Shown one piece after another: positions 1 to 34,570 of a stretch of 34,570 nt of DNA (the first letter of the stretch is position 1; the number at the start of each line of letters is the position of its first letter). The position numbers were made by a program, and so were the translations under genes. The DNA is taken from the IMG/VR virus record IMGVR_UViG_3300048033_000376, positions 1-34,570 of that record. The stretch is one strand, 5' to 3'. The DNA comes from a virus. A model generated the notes under the pieces. It saw only the letters and a list, made by a program, of their open reading frames with translations. It did not search any database and was not told the origin of the DNA.

Positions 1-613
1 CAAAAGCGTAAACATTTCTGGCGCTACTGTAGACACTTGGAACAGCACAAATGGATCGGGCATCAATCTCCTTTTCTCTCTTGGGCAGGGAACAACTTAC
101 GCCACAAGCACTGTAGGATCATGGACGTCTGGGAACTTTCATAGCTTAACTACAGAAACAGACTTAATAGCAACTGCATCTGCCACATGGCAAATCACAG
201 GCGTCCAACTCGAAGTAGGCGACACCGCCACCCCCTTCGAACATAGGTCGTATGGGGACGAGCTTGCTAGGTGCCAGAGGTATTATGAAGTGCTTGCAGA
301 AGGCGTCAACGCCTCTAGTGGTTCAGGACACCTTTTAGGCAACATCACACAATACAACAGCACTCTCGCTATCGGTATAGTTCCTTACAAGGTTACTAAA
401 CGGGCACTTCCAACAGGTATTGTTGCTGGCGGTAATGGTTTTCGTGTTTTTTCAGGCGGAAGTTACCAAACATCCTCTAGCGTTGTTGTTGATGGCGACA
501 CAAGCATAACAAAAGCAAGAATAGATATCACAGTAACTGGAACAGCGGGTTTTGCTACATGGGTTCGAGGCCAAGCTAGTACTTGCCTTATAGCTGTAGA
601 TGCGGAGTTATAA
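1..613 (+). CDS. Tail fibre, C-terminal part (5' end outside window)
   Basis: The gene is open from the first base; the first whole codon is at position 2 and the stop is TAA at 611-613. The visible 203 residues are the end of a receptor-binding fibre: a carbohydrate-binding-like beta domain, the junction ITGVQLEVG...TPFEHRSYGDELARCQRYY common in marine phage fibres, then a variable tip of about 110 residues ending DAEL. It is a paralogue or allele of the fibre at 32737-33885. Bases 1-127 equal 33270-33396, similarity falls across the next 170 bases, and the tips are then unrelated apart from the final DAEL. The phase agrees with joining 32737-33269 directly to base 1, giving 381 residues. 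Role inferred from family style: host-surface recognition. The short ATG-started frame at 290 lies inside this gene. Confidence 0.8.
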   Translation, partial: KSVNISGATVDTWNSTNGSGINLLFSLGQGTTYATSTVGSWTSGNFHSLTTETDLIATASATWQITGVQLEVGDTATPFEHRSYGDELARCQRYYEVLAEGVNASSGSGHLLGNITQYNSTLAIGIVPYKVTKRALPTGIVAGGNGFRVFSGGSYQTSSSVVVDGDTSITKARIDITVTGTAGFATWVRGQASTCLIAVDAEL

Positions 614-615
614 TC

Positions 616-798
616 ATGGATAATATGAACATCATATCGGCACAGTACACTGTAGATTTTGACGGCAACAACTCTGGCATCCGTGCCACCATCGACGGTC
701 AGGAGTTGTCAGTCCCCCTCGACCCAGCTAATCGCCACTACGCAGAGATCATGCGGCAGGTCGAGGCTGGAACGCTAACCATCTTGGATGCTGACTAG
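616..798 (+). CDS. Small fibre-associated protein (short DPANRHY family member)
   Basis: This 60-residue protein starts at ATG 616, two bases after the fibre stop, with GGAG at 604-607 as a likely ribosome site. It begins MDNMNIISAQYTVDF and carries the motif VPLDPANRHYAEIM. Nearly the same motif (IPLDPANRHYQEVL) occurs near the start of the much longer protein at 33887-34417, also directly after a fibre gene. Both look like one family of fibre-linked proteins, perhaps assembly chaperones or cap proteins matched to the fibre tip; that role is inferred from position only. This copy lacks the long acidic C-terminal extension. It is the last gene before the terminator at 821-843. Confidence 0.7.
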   Translation: MDNMNIISAQYTVDFDGNNSGIRATIDGQELSVPLDPANRHYAEIMRQVEAGTLTILDAD

Positions 799-820
799 AT
801 CGAGCCACAAGTAAGCATTG

Positions 821-843
821 GGCCAGCCGCGTGCTGGCCTTTT
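821..843 (+). terminator. Rho-independent terminator after fibre module
   Basis: Perfect 7-bp stem GGCCAGC/GCTGGCC (821-827 with 833-839), 5-base loop, then TTTT. It sits 22 bases after the stop of the small cap protein and separates the fibre module from the structural operon that starts at 899. Confidence 0.85.
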
Positions 844-898: not shown

Positions 899-3800
899 AT
901 GGCTCTGATTGATCTGAACATTCCGGCTGGCGTTTACCGAAACGGCACTGACCTGCAATCAAAGGGCCGCTGGAGAGACGCAAACCTCGTCCGCTGGCAT
1001 GATGGCGTTATGCGCCCTATAGGTGGATGGCGTACACGATCCTCAGACCAAGCCTCCGCACCACTACGCGGTATGCTGTCTTGGGTTGATAACGGCAACA
1101 ACGCCCACGTCGCATCTGGCAGCTTTGACCGCCTATACGCTTGGAGCGCCGCAGGGTTTATCCAAGACATTACGCCAAGCAACCTCACAGTTGGCCGCAT
1201 TGATGCGGATGCCTTTACAGGCTTCGGCGGCGGCTTCTTCGGCACATCCACATTCGGCACCGTCCGCCCCTTCACATCTCGCGTGCAGCCAGCAACAAGT
1301 TGGAACCTGCAACCGTGGGGCGAATACCTGATCGCCATGAACTCCGATGACGGCAAGATATACGAGTGGGACTTGGGCACTACGCTTGGCGACGAGCTTG
1401 TCCTGACGCCCGACTTTGCCTCAGACACAAACTGGACGAAGGGTAACGGCGGCGCAGGCGGCTCCAACTGGTCCATTGCTGGCGGGATCGCTAAATACGC
1501 TCACCTCATTGAGACCTTTGACGGCGGCGACGATGCTATCGCTGACCCCGCGACTGACACCATCACGATCACTGGCCACGGCCTAGCTGACGGCGATGAG
1601 GTTATCTACAGCGTCCCTGCCGCCCCTGCCACGGCCATCAGCGGCCTGACAGACGGCAACACATATTACATCATCTCGGCCACGGCCAACACGTTCCAGC
1701 TATCTGCCACCTCTGGCGGCGCGGCTGTAAACTTAACGCCAAGCAACTCGCTGACATTTGACGGCGATGACCCAGCGGTTGTGAATACTGCGGCGAATAA
1801 GATCGTCGAGGCCAACACGTTCAGCACTGGCGATTACGTTGAGTATGATAACGGCGGCGGCGTAGACATCGGCGGGCTGACCAACGGTGCAAACTACTAC
1901 ATCATTGCTGCAACTGCATCCGAGTTCCAACTGTCGCTGACATCGGGCGGTGCGGCTATCGACCTGACCCCTGACAACGCTGTCTTGTTTGACGGTGATG
2001 ACGTTGCAGTTGTGGACGTAGCCAGCGATAAAATTCTTGTAGCCAACACATTCGCAGACGGTGACGAGCTTACCTATGACAACGGCGGCGGCGTTGATAT
2101 TGGCGGCCTGACCACTGGCACGAACTACTTTGTTATTAACGCAACAGCCACAGAGTTTCAGCTATCGGCAACTTCTGGCGGTGCTGCGATCACTCTCACA
2201 GCAAACAACTCGGTCACATTTGATGGCGACGATGCGACTGTCGTTGACGTTGCGACTGACACAATCATCCAAGCGAACACGTTCACTTCCGGCGACCTTG
2301 TGACGTATAGCGCTGGCGGCGGTGTGGCTATCGGCGGCCTAACAGATGGTGCCAACTACTTCATTGTCAGCGCCACGGCGACCGACTTCCAACTGTCACT
2401 GACTTCTGGCGGCGCGGCAGTTACCCTCACTGCAAACAACTCTGTCACAGTAGACGCTACCGACGCGGCAGTGGTGGACGTTGCTACAGATGTTATAACA
2501 ATCGCCAACACGTTTGCTGACGGCGAGATCGTGACATACGACAACGGCGGCGGCACTGACATTGCTGGCTTGGTCAACGGCACGGATTACTACATCATCA
2601 ACGCCTCTGCGACTGACTTCCAAGTGTCTGCAACGTCTGGCGGCGCTGCTGTCGATCTTACTGCGCTGGGCACAGGTACAGCCCATGTGTTCCGCCAAGA
2701 CATCGGCTCATCGCATGAGGTTCGTGCAGACATTGGGTCGGCACACACGCTAGATCAGGACATCGGATCGGCTCACTTGTTCCGCGTAGACGCTGGCACT
2801 GGCCACGAGTTGTCACGCCAGAACTACGGCAACCTTGAGCAAGTTGTGGACGGCCTTAACAGCACGATCTACTTCGACGCCACTGACGCGACCGTGGTTG
2901 ACTTTGCCAATGACAAGTTTGTGATTACCTCTGATTTGGTTGAGGACGAGCAGGTAATCTACAACGTAGATGGCGGCACAGCCGTTGGTGGGCTGACAGA
3001 CGGCGCGACTTACTTTGTGGTGAACCGCACTGCAACGACATTCCAGTTGGCCCTCACTGCGGGCGGCACGCCCATCACGCTGACAGGCGTTGGTGTCGGC
3101 ACTACGCATGACTTCCGCAACACGCTGACAGATCGCGACACGCACGCCCTTCTGGTTACTCTGACCGACCCTGACGATGATAGCGACCCCGCAACGGTGC
3201 CGTCTGTTTCCGTACTGGTAACAACTACGGCCACGTCTACCGTGCTTGTGGATGAGGAGTTGGCCTTCGGTGAGAACCGCTTCCACTTCGACACGCTTGA
3301 GGATGAGGTTACGGTTGAGATCATCCCCGCAGCATTTGACACGCCCAACTTTGAGATTGATGACGTGAGCCTGCGGGTGACGCCTACCGCTGACCTTATT
3401 GAAGAAGCACCAATCGACAACCTTGGCATCGTTGTTACCGAGGAGCGCTTCCTGTTTGCTCTCGGCGCTGGCGGCAACCCTCGTAAGGTCCAGTGGTGTG
3501 ATCGCGAGGACAATACGCAGTGGACGCCCGCAACGACCAACGAGGCTGGCGATCTTGAGCTAAACACGTCTGGTCAGCTTATGGCTGGTTGCAATGTACG
3601 CGGCCAAACGCTGCTCCTGACCACCAGAGACGCCCATGTGGCGACATACGTCGGCCCGCCTTACGTTTACGGGATTGAGCGGGTAGGTACGTCCTGTGGG
3701 CTTGCTGCGCCGCAGGCTTACTCTGTTGTGGATGCTGGCTGCTTCTGGATGGGCGTCAACTCATTCTACTCTTACACGGGCAGCCAAGCACAAGAGTTGC

Positions 3801-4378
3801 AAAGCGAAATCTCTGACTACATTTTCAACGACATCAACCGCGCGCAGATCAGCAAGGTGTTTGCGGTGTCCAACAGTATGTTTGGCGAAATCTGGTGGTT
3901 CTACCCAAGTGCAGGATCGCTTGAGAATGACCGCTACGTCACGTTCAACTACATTGAGAACACTTGGAATATCGGTGAGCTTTCCCGCACCGCTGGCGTT
4001 GACCGTGGCGCGTTCCCACTGCCGCAAATGGCTGACCCATCTGACTTCAAGATTTACGAGCATGAAGTTGGGTTTAACTACGACAGCCTTATCCCGTTTG
4101 CTGAAACTGGCCCGCTCATGATCGGCGCTGGCGACACTGTTGCGTCCGTCGTGGAGATGATCCCTGACGAGAAAACGCAGGGCGACGTTGAGGCGACGTT
4201 TAAGACGCGCTTCTATCCCAATGGGACCGAGCGCAGCTATGGACCATATGACATGGCCAATCCGACCTCACTGCGCTTCACTGGCCGTCAGGTGCGTATG
4301 CGGGTCTCAGGCGTTGAGTTTGGCGATTGGCGTGTCGGGGTAAACCGCCTTGACGTTATAAGCGGTGGCCGTAGATGA
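899..4378 (+). CDS. Tail hub / nozzle protein (P22 gp10-like) with large tandem-repeat insertion
   Basis: This 1159-residue protein starts at ATG 899 behind GAGGCG. Its N-terminus (residues 1-160, with RWRDANLVRW, GGWRTRSSD, WGEYLIAMNSDDGKIYEW) and C-terminus (about 810-1159, with NPRKVQWCDRED, FWMGVNSFYSYTG, IWWFYPS, YVTFNYIENTWNIG) are the halves of a phage-stabilisation or nozzle-type beta-propeller, which forms the lower tail of short-tailed phages. P22 gp10 is about 470 residues, so this protein is more than twice that size. The extra length is an insertion between the halves: five adjacent repeats of 77-80 residues (208-598), four ten-residue repeats, then a sixth diverged long repeat (660-739). 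The inserted region probably projects outward as decoration or a host-contact arm; that is inference. It ends with an ATGA overlap with the next gene. Confidence 0.75.
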   Translation: MALIDLNIPAGVYRNGTDLQSKGRWRDANLVRWHDGVMRPIGGWRTRSSDQASAPLRGMLSWVDNGNNAHVASGSFDRLYAWSAAGFIQDITPSNLTVGRIDADAFTGFGGGFFGTSTFGTVRPFTSRVQPATSWNLQPWGEYLIAMNSDDGKIYEWDLGTTLGDELVLTPDFASDTNWTKGNGGAGGSNWSIAGGIAKYAHLIETFDGGDDAIADPATDTITITGHGLADGDEVIYSVPAAPATAISGLTDGNTYYIISATANTFQLSATSGGAAVNLTPSNSLTFDGDDPAVVNTAANKIVEANTFSTGDYVEYDNGGGVDIGGLTNGANYYIIAATASEFQLSLTSGGAAIDLTPDNAVLFDGDDVAVVDVASDKILVANTFADGDELTYDNGGGVDIGGLTTGTNYFVINATATEFQLSATSGGAAITLTANNSVTFDGDDATVVDVATDTIIQANTFTSGDLVTYSAGGGVAIGGLTDGANYFIVSATATDFQLSLTSGGAAVTLTANNSVTVDATDAAVVDVATDVITIANTFADGEIVTYDNGGGTDIAGLVNGTDYYIINASATDFQVSATSGGAAVDLTALGTGTAHVFRQDIGSSHEVRADIGSAHTLDQDIGSAHLFRVDAGTGHELSRQNYGNLEQVVDGLNSTIYFDATDATVVDFANDKFVITSDLVEDEQVIYNVDGGTAVGGLTDGATYFVVNRTATTFQLALTAGGTPITLTGVGVGTTHDFRNTLTDRDTHALLVTLTDPDDDSDPATVPSVSVLVTTTATSTVLVDEELAFGENRFHFDTLEDEVTVEIIPAAFDTPNFEIDDVSLRVTPTADLIEEAPIDNLGIVVTEERFLFALGAGGNPRKVQWCDREDNTQWTPATTNEAGDLELNTSGQLMAGCNVRGQTLLLTTRDAHVATYVGPPYVYGIERVGTSCGLAAPQAYSVVDAGCFWMGVNSFYSYTGSQAQELQSEISDYIFNDINRAQISKVFAVSNSMFGEIWWFYPSAGSLENDRYVTFNYIENTWNIGELSRTAGVDRGAFPLPQMADPSDFKIYEHEVGFNYDSLIPFAETGPLMIGAGDTVASVVEMIPDEKTQGDVEATFKTRFYPNGTERSYGPYDMANPTSLRFTGRQVRMRVSGVEFGDWRVGVNRLDVISGGRR
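1520..2692 (+). repeat. Five tandem 77-80-residue coding repeats in nozzle gene
   Basis: Units start at 1520 (80 codons), 1760, 1991 and 2222 (77 codons each) and 2453 (80 codons). Each runs from a DGDD/DATD start through an ANTF...GD region, GGG..IGGLT.G..Y, and ..ATA..FQLS.TSGGAA..LT. The three central units are exactly 231 bases apart with no indel. A sixth, diverged unit lies at 2876-3115. Confidence 0.9.
2693..2812 (+). repeat. Four tandem 10-residue repeats in nozzle gene
   Basis: Four consecutive 30-base units encode RQDIGSSHEV, RADIGSAHTL, DQDIGSAHLF and RVDAGTGHEL. They lie between the fifth and sixth long repeats, and the DIGS.H core keeps an exact 10-residue period. Confidence 0.85.
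2876..3115 (+). repeat. Sixth, diverged copy of the nozzle long repeat
   Basis: Eighty codons from DATDATVVDF to THDFR keep the GGLTDGATYFVVN and TFQLALTAGG cores of the upstream tandem units. The copy is separated from them by the ten-residue repeats and a linker of about 21 residues. Confidence 0.75.
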
Positions 4379-24594: not shown

Positions 24595-24648
24595 ACATAT
24601 CAAAGCCCCAATTGTATATTGCAGGAGCAAAACATAGAGGGCGCACCC

Positions 24649-25284
24649 ATGGAAAATGGACGGTCTTGGCCAGCAGATAAGGTCGAGCGTAGAAAAATTA
24701 GCAGTATTGTTCCTTACGCTCGGAACAGCAGAACCCACAGCGATGAGCAGGTTGCGCAGATCGCATCCAGCATCAAAGAATGGGGCTTCACTAACCCAAT
24801 CTTAGTAGACATTGACGGCGAGATCATTGCCGGGCATGGCCGCTTACTCGCAGCGCAAAAGCTGGGCCTTGATGAGGTTCCCTGCATTACCGCTGTTGGA
24901 TGGTCTGAAGCGCAAAAGAAAGCCTATGTCATTGCCGATAACAAGCTGGCTATAAACGCTGGCTGGGATGTTGAGTTGTTACGCATTGAGCTTGATGAGC
25001 TAACCGATCTAAATTTTGACGTAAATCTTACAGGCTTTAGCGATGATGAAATCCTAAACCTTTCATTCGACAATGACGCTGAAGCTGAAATGCCTGATCT
25101 GGCCGATGGTGATCGAGAGCCATTCCAGCAGATGACTTTTACAATGCATGACGATCAGGCCGAAGAAGTGCGCGCTGCGATAGAAAAGGCTAAAGCTATG
25201 GGGCCATTTGTTGAAACTGCGAATGAAAACGGCAACGGAAATGCGTTGGCCAGAATTTGTGAGACTTTCAATGGCCTCAGCTAA
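24649..25284 (+). CDS. ParB/Srx-like protein paired with Mom
   Basis: I choose ATG 24649 (211 residues, GAGGGC upstream) over the TTG at 24619. Residues 7-100 are a ParB-like domain: ISSIVPYARNSRTHS, IKEWGFTNPILVDIDGEIIA, GHGRLLAAQKLGL, then AYVIADNKLAINAGWD. Residues about 115-140 (DLNFDVNLTGFSDDEILNLS) match the linker that usually joins such a domain to a DNA methyltransferase, but no methyltransferase follows in this chain. The C-terminal part (QMTFTMHDDQAEEVRAAIEK, NENGNGNALARICE) is of a type I associate with phage ParB proteins next to mom genes. It probably assists DNA modification, perhaps by NTP-dependent DNA binding or nicking. It overlaps mom by 14 bases. Confidence 0.75.
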   Translation: MENGRSWPADKVERRKISSIVPYARNSRTHSDEQVAQIASSIKEWGFTNPILVDIDGEIIAGHGRLLAAQKLGLDEVPCITAVGWSEAQKKAYVIADNKLAINAGWDVELLRIELDELTDLNFDVNLTGFSDDEILNLSFDNDAEAEMPDLADGDREPFQQMTFTMHDDQAEEVRAAIEKAKAMGPFVETANENGNGNALARICETFNGLS

Positions 25285-25999
25285 AGACATAGTGGTTAAG
25301 CCGATCACGGCGCAGGCAGCGAAAAAGCTGGTGAAGGCAATTCATTACAGCGGGAAAGTTGCAGCAAATTCTCAGCTTCACTTTGGGGTTTTCCTTAACG
25401 GAAGGCTCGAGGGCGCAATGCAATTTGGTCCATCGCTCGACAAACGAAAGACCCAGGGGCTTGTCGAGGGGACTGGTTGGAACGGCTTTCTTGAACTGAA
25501 CCGCATGGCCTTTTCCGATGTTCTTCCTCGAAACAGCGAAAGCAGGGCGCTTGGCGTTGCGATGCGGTTAATCAAAAAGCACTATCCGCACATTGAGTGG
25601 GTGATTAGTTTTTCAGATGGGACGCAGTGCGGGGATGGCACAATCTATCGCGCAAGCGGGTTTGTTCTGACTGGCATCAAGAAGAATACCAGTATTTGGG
25701 AAGCGCCAGATGGATCAACCGCAACAGATTTAAGCCTTCGACTTGGATTGCAGAATAAAGCGCCAAAGGTGATCAGTAAAACGACTATGACAAAGGGCAA
25801 AGCCATAACCCAAACTGGCGCGTCTTCAATGAAGCCATTTAGAGAGGCTGGATATAAGCCAAAAGAAGGCTTCCAACTTCGATATGTTTACTTCCTTACC
25901 CCAAAGGCAAAAGAAAGGCTAACAGTTCCTATTTTACCGTTCAGCAAAATTGACGAGATGGGCGCTGGTATGTATAAAGGGGAAAAGCGTGACAAGTAG
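25271..25999 (+). CDS. mom: Mom-type adenine modification enzyme
   Basis: ATG 25271 gives 242 residues, close to the length of Mu Mom; the frame is open from 25208 but earlier starts lie inside the ParB gene. The GNAT-like Mom pattern includes AIHYSGKV with His25-Tyr26, LHFGVFLNGRLEGAMQFGPS, FLELNRMAFSD, LGVAMRLIKKHYPHIEWVIS, FSDGTQCGDGTIYRASGF. Mu Mom converts adenines in phage DNA to a carbamoylmethyl form and so blocks many restriction enzymes. It has no good ribosome site of its own (GAGACTTTCA), so it is probably translated by coupling to the ParB gene, keeping a toxic modifier low. Sequence specificity is unknown. Confidence 0.75.
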   Translation: MASAKDIVVKPITAQAAKKLVKAIHYSGKVAANSQLHFGVFLNGRLEGAMQFGPSLDKRKTQGLVEGTGWNGFLELNRMAFSDVLPRNSESRALGVAMRLIKKHYPHIEWVISFSDGTQCGDGTIYRASGFVLTGIKKNTSIWEAPDGSTATDLSLRLGLQNKAPKVISKTTMTKGKAITQTGASSMKPFREAGYKPKEGFQLRYVYFLTPKAKERLTVPILPFSKIDEMGAGMYKGEKRDK

Positions 26000-31871: not shown

Positions 31872-32737
31872 TGTCTAACATCACACTAAACCCCAACGCA
31901 TCTGGCACGGGCACGTTTTCAATAGCCTCTCCGAATAGCAACGCCGACCGCACGCTGACACTGCCCGACAGCGACGGCGAACTGGCTTCCTTTGACAGCA
32001 GCGGTAACTTGGGGATTGGGACGAGTTCGCCTAGTACTCAGCTTGAAGTAGTAAATAATAACAGCAACTTGGCTAGGGTGCGTGTGAGTACGACAAGCAC
32101 AACGGCTGGAAACTATCGGGGCTACGAGTTTGCCCAAGGCAGCACTTTCAAGGGTGGACTGCTGCAAGATCAATCCAATGATGCTATTAGTGTTTTCACG
32201 CCAATTGGCGGTCAGTCTGTAACCATCGACAACAGCGGGCGGTTTATGGTGGGAAGCACCACTACTCTTGGTGGGAATATAAACACAGTTACCAGTGCGT
32301 CCACTTGGGGCATCTCGATTAAAGATGTCGTAAACAACCAAGCACTTATGAGGTTTCAAAATGCAAGCGCCTCACAGGTAGGCTCTATCCAACATAACGG
32401 TACTTCCACCTCATACGTCACCACCTCTGACTACCGCCTAAAGACTGACGCACAGCCAATGACAGGCGCATCTGCCCGTGTCCAAGCACTGAACCCAGTG
32501 AACTTTGAGTGGATTGCAGACGGCACCCGTGTAGATGGTTTCCTTGCACATGAAGCACAGGCTGTAGTTCCAGAAGCTGTCACAGGCACGAAGGACGCAG
32601 TGGACGCAGATGGCAACCCAGACTACCAAGGCATCGACCAATCGAAGCTGGTGCCACTGCTGACGGCTGCACTGCAAGAAGCCTTAACTGAAATCACCGA
32701 CCTTAAGGCACGGGTCGCAGCATTGGAGGCAGTGTAA
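31871..32737 (+). CDS. Tail fibre with self-cleaving S74 intramolecular chaperone
   Basis: The 288-residue protein begins MSNITLNPNASGTGTFSIAS with the fibre motif DSSGNLGIGTSSPSTQLEV (42-60). Residues about 183-288 are a peptidase S74 chaperone domain: TTSDYRLKTD with Ser186 and Lys191, NPVNFEWIADG, DGFLAHEAQAVVPEAV, then a coiled-coil end (LVPLLTAALQEALTEITDLK). Ser and Lys five apart equal the endosialidase cleavage pair. The domain helps trimer folding and then cuts itself off before Ser186, leaving a fibre of about 185 residues. The start overlaps the previous stop. Confidence 0.85.
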   Translation: MSNITLNPNASGTGTFSIASPNSNADRTLTLPDSDGELASFDSSGNLGIGTSSPSTQLEVVNNNSNLARVRVSTTSTTAGNYRGYEFAQGSTFKGGLLQDQSNDAISVFTPIGGQSVTIDNSGRFMVGSTTTLGGNINTVTSASTWGISIKDVVNNQALMRFQNASASQVGSIQHNGTSTSYVTTSDYRLKTDAQPMTGASARVQALNPVNFEWIADGTRVDGFLAHEAQAVVPEAVTGTKDAVDADGNPDYQGIDQSKLVPLLTAALQEALTEITDLKARVAALEAV

Positions 32738-33885
32738 TGTCCACACTTAAAGTAGATAGCATCGTAGACGGCGGCGGCTCTGGCGCTCCAACGGCCCCGA
32801 ATGGCCTGACCGTCGGCACCACGGCAATTCCTACATCGGGTGCCTTGTCTAACCGCAACCTGATTATCAATGGTGGTATGGTCATAAGCCAACGCTATGG
32901 AGCTGCATCACAATCCCCTGCACCATCTGGTTATGGGATTGACAGATGGGCCACATATAAAAGTGGAGCAGGGACATTTAGCATCCAACAATCAACGGAT
33001 GGGCCTTCAGGGTTTTCTAATTCTGCTTTAATAACTGTGACATCAAATTCTACGCCTTCTGGCGGAGATTATTATATCTTTCAACACCCAATTGAAGGGT
33101 ACAATATGTCTCAACTTGATTGGGGAGCATCTGGCGCAAAAGATGTGACGCTTTCATTTTGGGTAAAGTCTTCTGTTACAGGTACTTTTGGCGGATCGCT
33201 CCGATCTTCAACGGGTAATTATAGTTACGTCTTTGATTACACTGTCAACTCTTCAAGCACATGGGAGTACAAAAGCGTAAACATTTCTGGCGCTACTGTA
33301 GACACTTGGAACAGCACAAATGGATCGGGCATCAATCTCCTTTTCTCTCTTGGGCAGGGAACAACTTACGCCACAAGCACTGTAGGATCATGGACGGCTG
33401 GGAACTTTCATAGCTCAACTACAGAAACAGACTTCATTGCGAATGCCTCCGCCACCTTCCAAATCACAGGTGTCCAACTAGAAGTAGGCAAAGTCGCCAC
33501 GCCTTTTGAACACCGATCCTATGGGGAAGAACTGGCGTTGTGCCAGCGGTATTATTGGAAACTTGGTGATCGCAATGGGACGAATATTCCTATTGGGATT
33601 GGTTCGTACACAACAGGAAGTTCTGGTGGCAATAGGATTGATGTAGTTATTACTTTACCTACAACAATGCGGACAACGCCATCTGCGATTGTTGCATATG
33701 GTACAAACTATTACGATTTTTACTCAACAAGTGACGACTTCTTTTCAGATATTGATATTGGAGATGCGACAAACACTTTTGTAAATTTACGACGAGGAGG
33801 TGACGTAAGTGGAACTCAGGGAGTTGCAGGTTATGTCTTAATGACAACAGATGGTGCATCCATTGCATTCGATGCGGAGTTATAA
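32737..33885 (+). CDS. Tail fibre with carbohydrate-binding-like domain, tip variant B
   Basis: The 382-residue protein has an N-terminal MSTLKVDSIVDGGGSGAPTA, the motif SNRNLIINGGMVISQRYGA (38-56), a beta-sandwich region (LSFWVKSSVTGTFGGSLRS to TFQITGVQLEVG) and a variable tip after EELALCQRYYWKL ending DAEL. The beta-sandwich resembles carbohydrate-binding modules. Bases 33270-33396 are identical to the start of the window, after which this copy and that one drift apart and then differ fully in the tip. It probably determines host range. The start overlaps the S74 fibre stop. Confidence 0.75.
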   Translation: MSTLKVDSIVDGGGSGAPTAPNGLTVGTTAIPTSGALSNRNLIINGGMVISQRYGAASQSPAPSGYGIDRWATYKSGAGTFSIQQSTDGPSGFSNSALITVTSNSTPSGGDYYIFQHPIEGYNMSQLDWGASGAKDVTLSFWVKSSVTGTFGGSLRSSTGNYSYVFDYTVNSSSTWEYKSVNISGATVDTWNSTNGSGINLLFSLGQGTTYATSTVGSWTAGNFHSSTTETDFIANASATFQITGVQLEVGKVATPFEHRSYGEELALCQRYYWKLGDRNGTNIPIGIGSYTTGSSGGNRIDVVITLPTTMRTTPSAIVAYGTNYYDFYSTSDDFFSDIDIGDATNTFVNLRRGGDVSGTQGVAGYVLMTTDGASIAFDAEL

Positions 33886-33886
33886 T

Positions 33887-34417
33887 ATGATGTATTCAAC
33901 TATTATATGGGATGAAAAGCTGTTTGGGATAAAAGCTGAAGGCGTAAAAATCCCCCTAGACCCTGCAAACCGCCACTATCAGGAAGTGCTAGACGCAATC
34001 ATTGAACAAGGCGCAGACTGCTTTGACGGTGATATTCCTGCTGACCTACAGGCAGCGGCAGACGAAAAGCAGTTCAACCAACAGCTTGCAGACTACCGTG
34101 TAGCAGTGGCCCGACTAGCGCAATACATCGTTGCAGATGGACGTGAAGAAGTCACTGAGATGCAGCCTACAGGTGAACAGGTGTTCAACGAAGAAACAAT
34201 GGAAATGGAAGATGTGATGCATGAGGTTATCACAGTCACAGCCATTGAACCTGTTGAGCCTACAGTCACACGCATGGTGTACTCTGAGGATGACCCAATG
34301 GCAGAGCCCACAGAGGAAACCATTGAAAACCCTGTAATCACAACAGACAACGAAGAACGTGCAGCGGCTCAGGCTGTTGTTGATGCTACACCACAGGCGG
34401 TCATTGAGGCTGCATAA
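33887..34417 (+). CDS. Fibre-associated protein, long DPANRHY family member
   Basis: The 176-residue protein starts at ATG 33887, just after the fibre stop (a second ATG at 33890 is equally possible). The N-terminus MMYSTIIWDEKLFGIK and the motif VKIPLDPANRHYQEVLDAII match the short protein at 616-798. It then has a long acidic extension (about 60-176), rich in Glu, Thr and Val, with helical QFNQQLADYRVAVARLAQYI. It may be a chaperone or cap for the fibre tip encoded before it. Confidence 0.65.
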   Translation: MMYSTIIWDEKLFGIKAEGVKIPLDPANRHYQEVLDAIIEQGADCFDGDIPADLQAAADEKQFNQQLADYRVAVARLAQYIVADGREEVTEMQPTGEQVFNEETMEMEDVMHEVITVTAIEPVEPTVTRMVYSEDDPMAEPTEETIENPVITTDNEERAAAQAVVDATPQAVIEAA

Positions 34418-34570
34418 TGTCAGACACAACGAGTACAAACGACAGTTGGCACCTGTCTAAGTCTGTGCCAATCACGCTAATCTTTGGTCTCCTCGTTCAA
34501 GCGGGGGCCATAGTATGGACCGTCAGTATGATGATGGCTGACATCGAGTCAAACATGCGCGACATCATGG
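34417..34570 (+). CDS. Membrane protein, 3' end outside window
   Basis: The reading frame starts in the overlap TAATG and runs off the window end. The 51 visible residues are MSDTTSTNDSWHLSKSVPIT, then one membrane helix (about 20-40, LIFGLLVQAGAIVWTVSMMM) and a polar DIESNMRDIM. I associate such small proteins with lysis (holin-like) or virion membrane roles. A lysis module already exists at 14785-16663, which leaves its role open. Confidence 0.6.
   Translation, partial: MSDTTSTNDSWHLSKSVPITLIFGLLVQAGAIVWTVSMMMADIESNMRDIM

What the first reader, a model, noticed from the sequence alone, without database searches (positions are those of the whole stretch)
33397..34570. Alternative fibre tip swaps together with its own cap protein
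After the shared 127 bases, tip A (128-613) is followed by a 60-residue DPANRHY protein and a terminator. Tip B (33397-33885) is followed by a 176-residue DPANRHY protein and a membrane gene. Similarity fades gradually before the tips diverge. This looks like a module, tip plus matched partner, exchanged between strains, or two states of one locus. It would be a simple host-range switch.
Basis: partly seen in the sequence, partly recalled or inferred. Interest (0 to 1): 0.7.

Follow-up and report, generated by a model that had tools for sequence, protein, structure and literature searches.

The report
Exchangeable phage tail-fibre tips
Two variants of a virus of aquatic bacteria share a tail fibre but carry different tips and different small helper proteins; in relatives the tip is usually exchanged on its own, while the helper protein goes with the conserved joint just in front of the tip.

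Summary
Window 1-127 equals 33270-33396 exactly; two continuations follow. A: tip 284-610, 60-aa cap, virion gene. B: tip 33553-33882, 176-aa cap, membrane ORF. The fork looks like an assembly branch between two coexisting variants (127 is, from recall, a standard assembler k-mer), not a proven switch. (1) Tip and cap length do not always go together: the same tip (83-85% identity) sits on both cap classes in two cases, with a third pair at 56%; in 16 of 16 same-stalk pairs the tip is unrelated while the cap class is unchanged. (2) What goes with cap length is the short joint before the tip: KV-joint 44 long, 1 short; DT-joint 75 short, 1 truncated long. Window A is DT/short, B is KV/long. (3) Tips end in a DNA-conserved GCGGAGTTATAA that encodes the fibre's last residues and probably the cap's ribosome-binding site; some caps are chimeras joined at DPANRHY. 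So the module is a tip cassette between conserved joints, often swapped alone, sometimes with the cap's N-terminus; the window's larger A/B swap is unusual. Fibre-tip and chaperone exchange is a known kind; the long-cap family and the joint rule look undescribed.

The parts
1..127 (+). end of the fibre stalk, exact copy of 33270-33396; fork point of the two continuations
   Evidence: exact 127-base repeat
33270..33396 (+). second copy of the 127-base stalk end, inside the full-length fibre gene
206..283 (+). joint 1 (hinge) of version A, type DT: QLEVGDTATPFEHRSYGDELARCQRY
284..613 (+). tip A, 109 aa, ends DAEL; only one relative found in the viral contigs (82%, L237/L298, different stalk, short cap)
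599..618 (+). joint 2 of version A: GATGCGGAGTTATAATCATG, last fibre codons + probable Shine-Dalgarno + stop + cap start
616..798 (+). cap A, 60 aa, short class; relatives annotated 'tail assembly chaperone' in phage Melnitz
715..741 (+). joint 3 of version A: PLDPANRHY in cap A
820..840 (+). terminator-like hairpin after cap A, weak T-run
899..4378 (+). virion structural gene that follows cap A; same spacing after a short cap in L231 and L247
31871..32737 (+). upstream fibre gene with Peptidase_S74 (endosialidase-type) chaperone domain
32737..33885 (+). tail fibre gene, version B complete: CBM4-like jelly roll, hinge, tip B
33475..33552 (+). joint 1 (hinge) of version B, type KV: QLEVGKVATPFEHRSYGEELALCQRY
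33553..33885 (+). tip B, 110 aa, ends DAEL; no relative found in the viral contigs
33871..33889 (+). joint 2 of version B: GATGCGGAGTTATAATATG
33887..34417 (+). cap B, 176 aa, long class; no Pfam family, no match in 50,697 phage records
33953..33979 (+). joint 3 of version B: PLDPANRHY in cap B
34417..34570 (+). start of a small membrane ORF (membrane nature read from the sequence), cut by the record's end; similar ORFs follow both cap classes

Best explanation
The record is essentially one circular (or circularly permuted) phage genome of about 33.3 kb, version A. The assembly path was carried past a fork into 1.17 kb of a coexisting variant, version B, that has the same fibre stalk. The fibre is a CBM4-like stalk domain followed by a short conserved joint (a strand and a helix) and a ~110-residue tip, the likely receptor-binding part. 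The downstream cap is most likely a fibre chaperone or cap. Tips are cassettes exchanged between phages by recombination at conserved joints: joint 1 before the tip, joint 2 at the fibre stop / cap ribosome-binding site, joint 3 at DPANRHY inside the cap. The common event replaces the tip alone or the tip plus the cap's N-terminus. The joint-1 type and the cap body stay together, either because they co-fold or because they mark a lineage. The window pair is a rarer, larger exchange that changed joint 1, tip and whole cap. Shown: the fork, the joints, the linkage of joint and cap, tips shared across classes. Inferred: the chaperone function, receptor binding, the recombination route, and that A and B sit in otherwise similar genomes.
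For: Fork and exact 127 bases. Fibre-short cap-virion gene order in L231 and L247 at 283 and 290 nt against 288 in the window. Joint/cap linkage: KV 44 long, 1 short; DT 75 short, 1 truncated long, Fisher p 1e-30; in newly found material only, KV 14 of 15 scorable long and DT 51 of 52 scorable short. Same tip on both classes. 16 same-stalk pairs with unrelated tips and unchanged class; two of them (L273/L289, L238/L350) keep stalk, cap body and downstream DNA at 88-98% around a tip with no alignable identity. Joint 2: GGAG within the last codons in 39 of 41 KV and 69 of 81 DT loci; the isolates HMO-2011 and Melnitz both end in GCGGAGTTATAA. Chimeric caps L168 and L309. Fibre model with the jelly-roll/tip boundary at the joint, and CBM4 matches. 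NinB/Orf recombination mediator, SSB, RusA and exonuclease genes in the window.
Against: No reads were available, so neither junction is checked, and one contig cannot show which branch belongs to the upstream genome. A same-stalk change of class like the window's was not seen elsewhere: 0 of 2,464 KV-DT pairs share a stalk at 75% or more, best 71% (L171/L236). Tip sharing across classes is below free assortment among pairs of 50% or more (3 of 24 against 8.3 expected, p 0.034), so some coupling exists. The hinge is no more DNA-conserved than the cap extension (4-fold identity 0.76 against 0.73), so a special recombination role of the hinge is not shown. Cap B has no significant fold match and no homology to the known A5 chaperone.
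Confidence: 0.6

Rival explanations
1. The genome has two fibre genes (one with tip A and short cap, one with tip B and long cap) that share a 127-base repeat; the contig broke there, and nothing is alternative.
For: 11 of 293 hinge-bearing loci hold two such fibres; L115 carries two fibre-cap pairs in tandem.
Against: 0 of 293 loci hold both a KV and a DT joint. The A order fibre-short cap-virion gene with the window's spacing occurs in L231 and L247. Loci are stretches of 4-20 kb, so a distant second fibre could be missed.
Confidence: 0.17
2. Assembly chimera: the B branch belongs to an unrelated phage that only shares the 127-mer, and no genome with this backbone carries tip B.
For: The fork length fits a k-mer (recalled assembler default). 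Long caps lie mostly in other backbones. A class change on one stalk was not seen in relatives.
Against: The B molecule still has this otherwise rare stalk: 127 exact bases, then ~95% for about 35 more, while the best fibre relatives elsewhere have 50% identity. Long caps do occur beside the same virion gene (L197). Any such molecule is itself a tip/cap recombinant on the same stalk end.
Confidence: 0.15
3. One reading: tip and matched cap are one obligate module, swapped together between strains or as two states of one locus (host-range switch).
For: The A/B pair changes both. Weak tip to cap-N-terminus correlation (Mantel p 0.02 and 0.04). One tip family (L177, L185, L299) has similar cap N-termini, 0.58-0.74 against 0.29 background.
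Against: Same tip with both classes in three pairs. Tips swapped with the cap retained in most DT pairs. No silent copy or flanking inverted repeats.
Confidence: 0.08

Closest known systems
Alteromonas phage A5 / V22 tail fibre and chaperone-cap module (PMC10579305; abstract, found passages and sections 7 and 11 read)
   Same: Fibre gene followed by a chaperone gene, shared between unrelated marine phages. There the chaperone's strands pair with the fibre head in models, with a helical body and a beta-hairpin. The cap B model also has N-terminal strands, helices, a long hairpin and C-terminal helices.
   Different: No sequence homology of cap B to A5 gp9. The DUF4376 profile hits A5 gp9 (3.4e-11) but none of 34 long caps at E <= 1. 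Here tips move without the cap in several cases.
Metaviromic islands in marine phages (PMC3909814; passages read)
   Same: [quoted passage not shown] tail fibre assembly proteins are also listed.
   Different: Island-level read recruitment; no joints, no cap classes, no linkage rule in the passages seen.
Carotovoricin tail fibre loci of Pectobacterium (PMC13195805; passages read)
   Same: Exchange of tail fibre loci by recombination in flanking conserved blocks.
   Different: Bacterial tailocins with an added DNA inversion; none seen here.
T-even gp37/gp38 and Mu S/U fibre-chaperone modules (recalled, no call)
   Same: Fibre tip and assembly protein encoded side by side, with tip exchange.
   Different: Mu uses an invertible segment; no flanking inverted repeat found here.
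Isolates HMO-2011 and Melnitz: fibre + small downstream protein
   Same: Same fibre family, short cap directly after it, same GCGGAGTTATAA end.
   Different: Other joint-1 types (EQ, EI); no long cap.

Membership tests
tail fibre + downstream chaperone/cap module | cap gene directly downstream of the fibre, translationally close | tested here: met
   caps start 1-2 nt after the fibre stop in the window; first ATG at offset 1-2 in 35 of 41 KV and 61 of 81 DT loci
tail fibre + downstream chaperone/cap module | module or tip shared between otherwise unrelated phages | tested here: met
   tips 82-85% identical on unrelated stalks
tail fibre + downstream chaperone/cap module | cap needed for fibre folding or binding to the tip | not testable with these tools
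   needs co-expression; only the annotation 'tail assembly chaperone' in Melnitz
DUF4376 fibre chaperones (A5 gp9, V22 gp27) | DUF4376 profile | tested here: not met
   0 of 34 long caps at E <= 1; positive control A5 gp9 3.4e-11; hhalign to A5 gp9 none
DUF4376 fibre chaperones (A5 gp9, V22 gp27) | fold: strands, helical body, beta-hairpin | tested here: inconclusive
   similar order of elements in the cap B model; no significant fold match, an intramolecular chaperone only at E 0.66
phage tail fibre with CBM4-like stalk (PHROG 4492) | profile match and jelly-roll fold | tested here: met
   PHROG 4492 E 1.6e-55; CBM4-2 match E 4.8e-5, TMt 0.69
invertible tail fibre switch (Gin type) | silent alternative copy and inverted repeats at the fibre | tested here: not met
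   no inverted repeat at the fibre and no further copy
invertible tail fibre switch (Gin type) | DNA invertase gene | tested here: inconclusive
   none named among the window proteins scanned; not every ORF was scanned
diversity-generating retroelement | template repeat matching the tip | tested here: not met
   no repeat of 30 nt or more involving the tips besides the fork

The most novel reading that the evidence does not exclude
A shared pool of fibre tips circulates among unrelated aquatic phages through common joint sequences: a hinge whose type is tied to the cap body, and a 3' joint in which the fibre's last codons double as the cap's ribosome-binding site. Any tip could then plug into any fibre without breaking cap expression. 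The long caps would be a new chaperone family with a swappable N-terminal docking part and a fixed body.
Probability: 0.3. Interest if true: 0.65.

Novelty: new variant of a known kind. Interest (0 to 1): 0.48.

Why it matters
Fibre tips are the most variable part of these viruses and probably set which bacterial strains they infect. Fixed joints that bound the exchangeable part would let tips be cut out of metagenomes automatically, and would make the question 'which part must match the chaperone?' directly testable. Here the data point to the joint and the cap body as the linked pair, and at most to the cap's N-terminus as tip-specific.

Tried and rejected
Tip A and tip B as queries gave one and zero relatives, so tip type could not be followed directly; I turned to cap-, fibre- and joint-driven sampling. 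The idea that the hinge is a specially conserved DNA recombination site: KV hinges do share more synonymous sites than codon usage predicts (0.68-0.76 against 0.32), but the cap extension is just as conserved (0.73), so the idea is not supported. The cap B fold search gave nothing significant. Cap B has no match in the annotated phages (a relative), none confirmed in genome contigs, none in solved structures. A search of the other loci for end repeats of an assembler length found none, so the k = 127 reading rests on recall. TerL relatives (80 kept of 161) mostly carry other fibre genes, with a different small gene before the virion gene.

Limits of the samples. Capped: fibre 80 of 178, TerL 80 of 161, cap A 80 of 554 or more; the DT-joint scan found 103 stretches of which 80 were listed, and the others were also held and used. 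Rows dropped before counts: identical tip+cap copies; loci with the tip cut by the contig end (7); loci without the joint motif (6 long and 31 short). In one search identical tips were removed first and pairs were formed within one joint type only; pairs across joint types were checked. So same-stalk strains with the same tip are not among the 16 pairs (one such pair with another joint type, L268/L269, is seen).

Full report
Observation. The record's first 127 bases recur exactly at 33270-33396; identity then falls in steps (about 95%, then 75%, then none) over the next 160 bases. This is the only long direct repeat in the record, which is a whole IMG/VR entry of 34,570 bases. A hairpin follows cap A but is not a strict terminator match.

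What the fork is. An exact repeat of 127 bases at the start of a contig is what an assembler using k = 127 leaves at a branch point (recalled, not tested; no other held locus showed such a repeat). Read as a circle, version A gives a genome of about 33.3 kb in which the fibre is followed by the short cap and then the virion gene 899-4378. The same order and spacing occurs in L231 and L247 (283 and 290 nt from the tip stop to the virion gene, 288 in the window). Version B is a second continuation of the same stalk. The stalk is rare: the nearest fibres elsewhere have at most 50% identity. Two fibre genes in one genome is less likely, because 0 of 293 hinge-bearing loci hold both joint types, but it is not excluded.

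Anatomy. The fibre matches PHROG 4492. A model (mean pLDDT 84.6) shows a disordered start, a jelly roll that matches CBM4 modules, a strand and helix with the motif QLEVG..ATPFEHRSYG.EL..CQRY (here called joint 1 or hinge, with types KV and DT; my labels), and a beta-rich tip from about residue 273. Tips end in (D)AEL. The DNA there, GATGCGGAGTTATAAT.ATG, is conserved in both classes: GGAG lies inside the last codons in 39 of 41 KV and 69 of 81 DT loci, and in the isolates HMO-2011 and Melnitz. It fits a Shine-Dalgarno sequence for the cap (inference). The caps share only about their first 47 residues. The long cap adds a body of about 130 residues; its model (pLDDT 91.4) has N-terminal strands, helices, a long hairpin and terminal helices.

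Test 1, tip against cap length. In 215 tip-cap combinations, 24 tip pairs have 50% identity or more over most of their length, and 3 of these join a long-cap and a short-cap fibre (L309/L221 84.9%, L179/L222 83.5%, L175/L227 55.6%); 8.3 would be expected if labels were random (fraction of shuffles at or below 3: 0.034). Among 364 pairs of 30-50% identity, 123 cross, against 125.5 expected. DNA profiles show the shared tip running from the hinge to the stop, with unrelated stalk before the hinge and little or no similarity in the cap after it. Tip A's one relative (L237, 82%) has an unrelated stalk.

Test 2, hinge type against cap length. In the first sample all 29 long-cap fibres with the motif read GKVAT, and 0 of 87 short-cap fibres did. 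I then scanned for the KV and DT hinges regardless of cap. Over all held loci, unique tip+cap, KV gives 44 long (3 of them cut), 1 short, 1 without a cap hit and 1 with the tip cut; DT gives 75 short (2 cut), 1 truncated long and 6 with the tip cut. In loci new to that scan: KV 14 long (1 cut), 1 short, 1 tip cut; DT 51 short (1 cut), 1 truncated long, 6 tip cut. Fisher p for 44:1 against 1:75 is 1e-30, ignoring relatedness. The window follows the rule in both versions.

Test 3, same stalk, different tip. Of 32 KV and 77 DT fibres (identical tips removed), 5 and 11 pairs within a type share the stalk at 75% or more; all 16 have unrelated tips (at most 0.33) and the same cap class. Across types, 0 of 2,464 pairs share a stalk at that level; the best is 71% (L171 long, L236 short), so the window's change of class on one stalk is unusual. 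At DNA level the DT pairs keep the cap N-terminus at 0.69 or more in 9 of 11 and the rest of the cap at 0.75 or more in 10 of 11. The KV pairs keep the cap body (0.78 or more) in 4 of 5 but lose the cap N-terminus (0.13 or less) in 4 of 5. L273/L289 and L238/L350 keep stalk, hinge, cap and downstream DNA (93-98% downstream) around a tip with no alignable identity. In KV phages the exchanged unit may therefore run from hinge to DPANRHY. This fits the A5/V22 models, in which strands of the chaperone pair with the fibre head (PMC10579305, section 11), and the chimeric caps L168 and L309 with a short-type start and long body. A Mantel test finds only a weak tip to cap-N-terminus link (r 0.136, p 0.024 in KV; r 0.072, p 0.043 in DT).

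Mechanism. I take recombination between co-infecting phages at the conserved joints as most likely. The phage encodes a NinB/Orf mediator, an SSB, RusA and an exonuclease, but no call tests their use. The linkage of hinge and cap body may be functional (the cap body holding the hinge) or may only mark lineages: their synonymous identity is about equal (0.76 and 0.73, against 0.32 from codon usage), so both were inherited over similar times, while the tip between them turned over faster.

Known and new. Exchange of fibre ends with assembly proteins is well known (PMC10579305; PMC3909814; PMC13195805, all seen as stated under Closest known systems; PMC7289586 seen in the search listing only; PMC9004378, the Melnitz paper, passages only). 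The long-cap family has no Pfam family, no match in 50,697 phage records and none confirmed in genome contigs. My literature searches showed no description of the hinge/cap rule; only the open part of the literature was searched.

Noticed in passing
window 899-4378: The virion gene is 1159 aa, against 492-620 aa in several relatives (one, L142, has 1022); the extra part holds a run of repeats of about 65 residues (PHROG 4711, six stretches).
   Followed up: no
L174:813-1280: A 155-aa ORF resembling a homing-endonuclease-type insertion lies between a KV tip and its long cap (resemblance recalled).
   Followed up: no
   Followed up: partly
window 24619-25999: A ParB-N-domain ORF next to a Mom-like DNA modification gene.
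   Followed up: no
   Followed up: partly
TerL relatives L084, L085, L094, L140, L145: Close TerL relatives carry quite different fibre genes, with another small gene directly before the virion gene; the site before the virion gene seems to be a standing slot for small fibre-associated genes.
   Followed up: no
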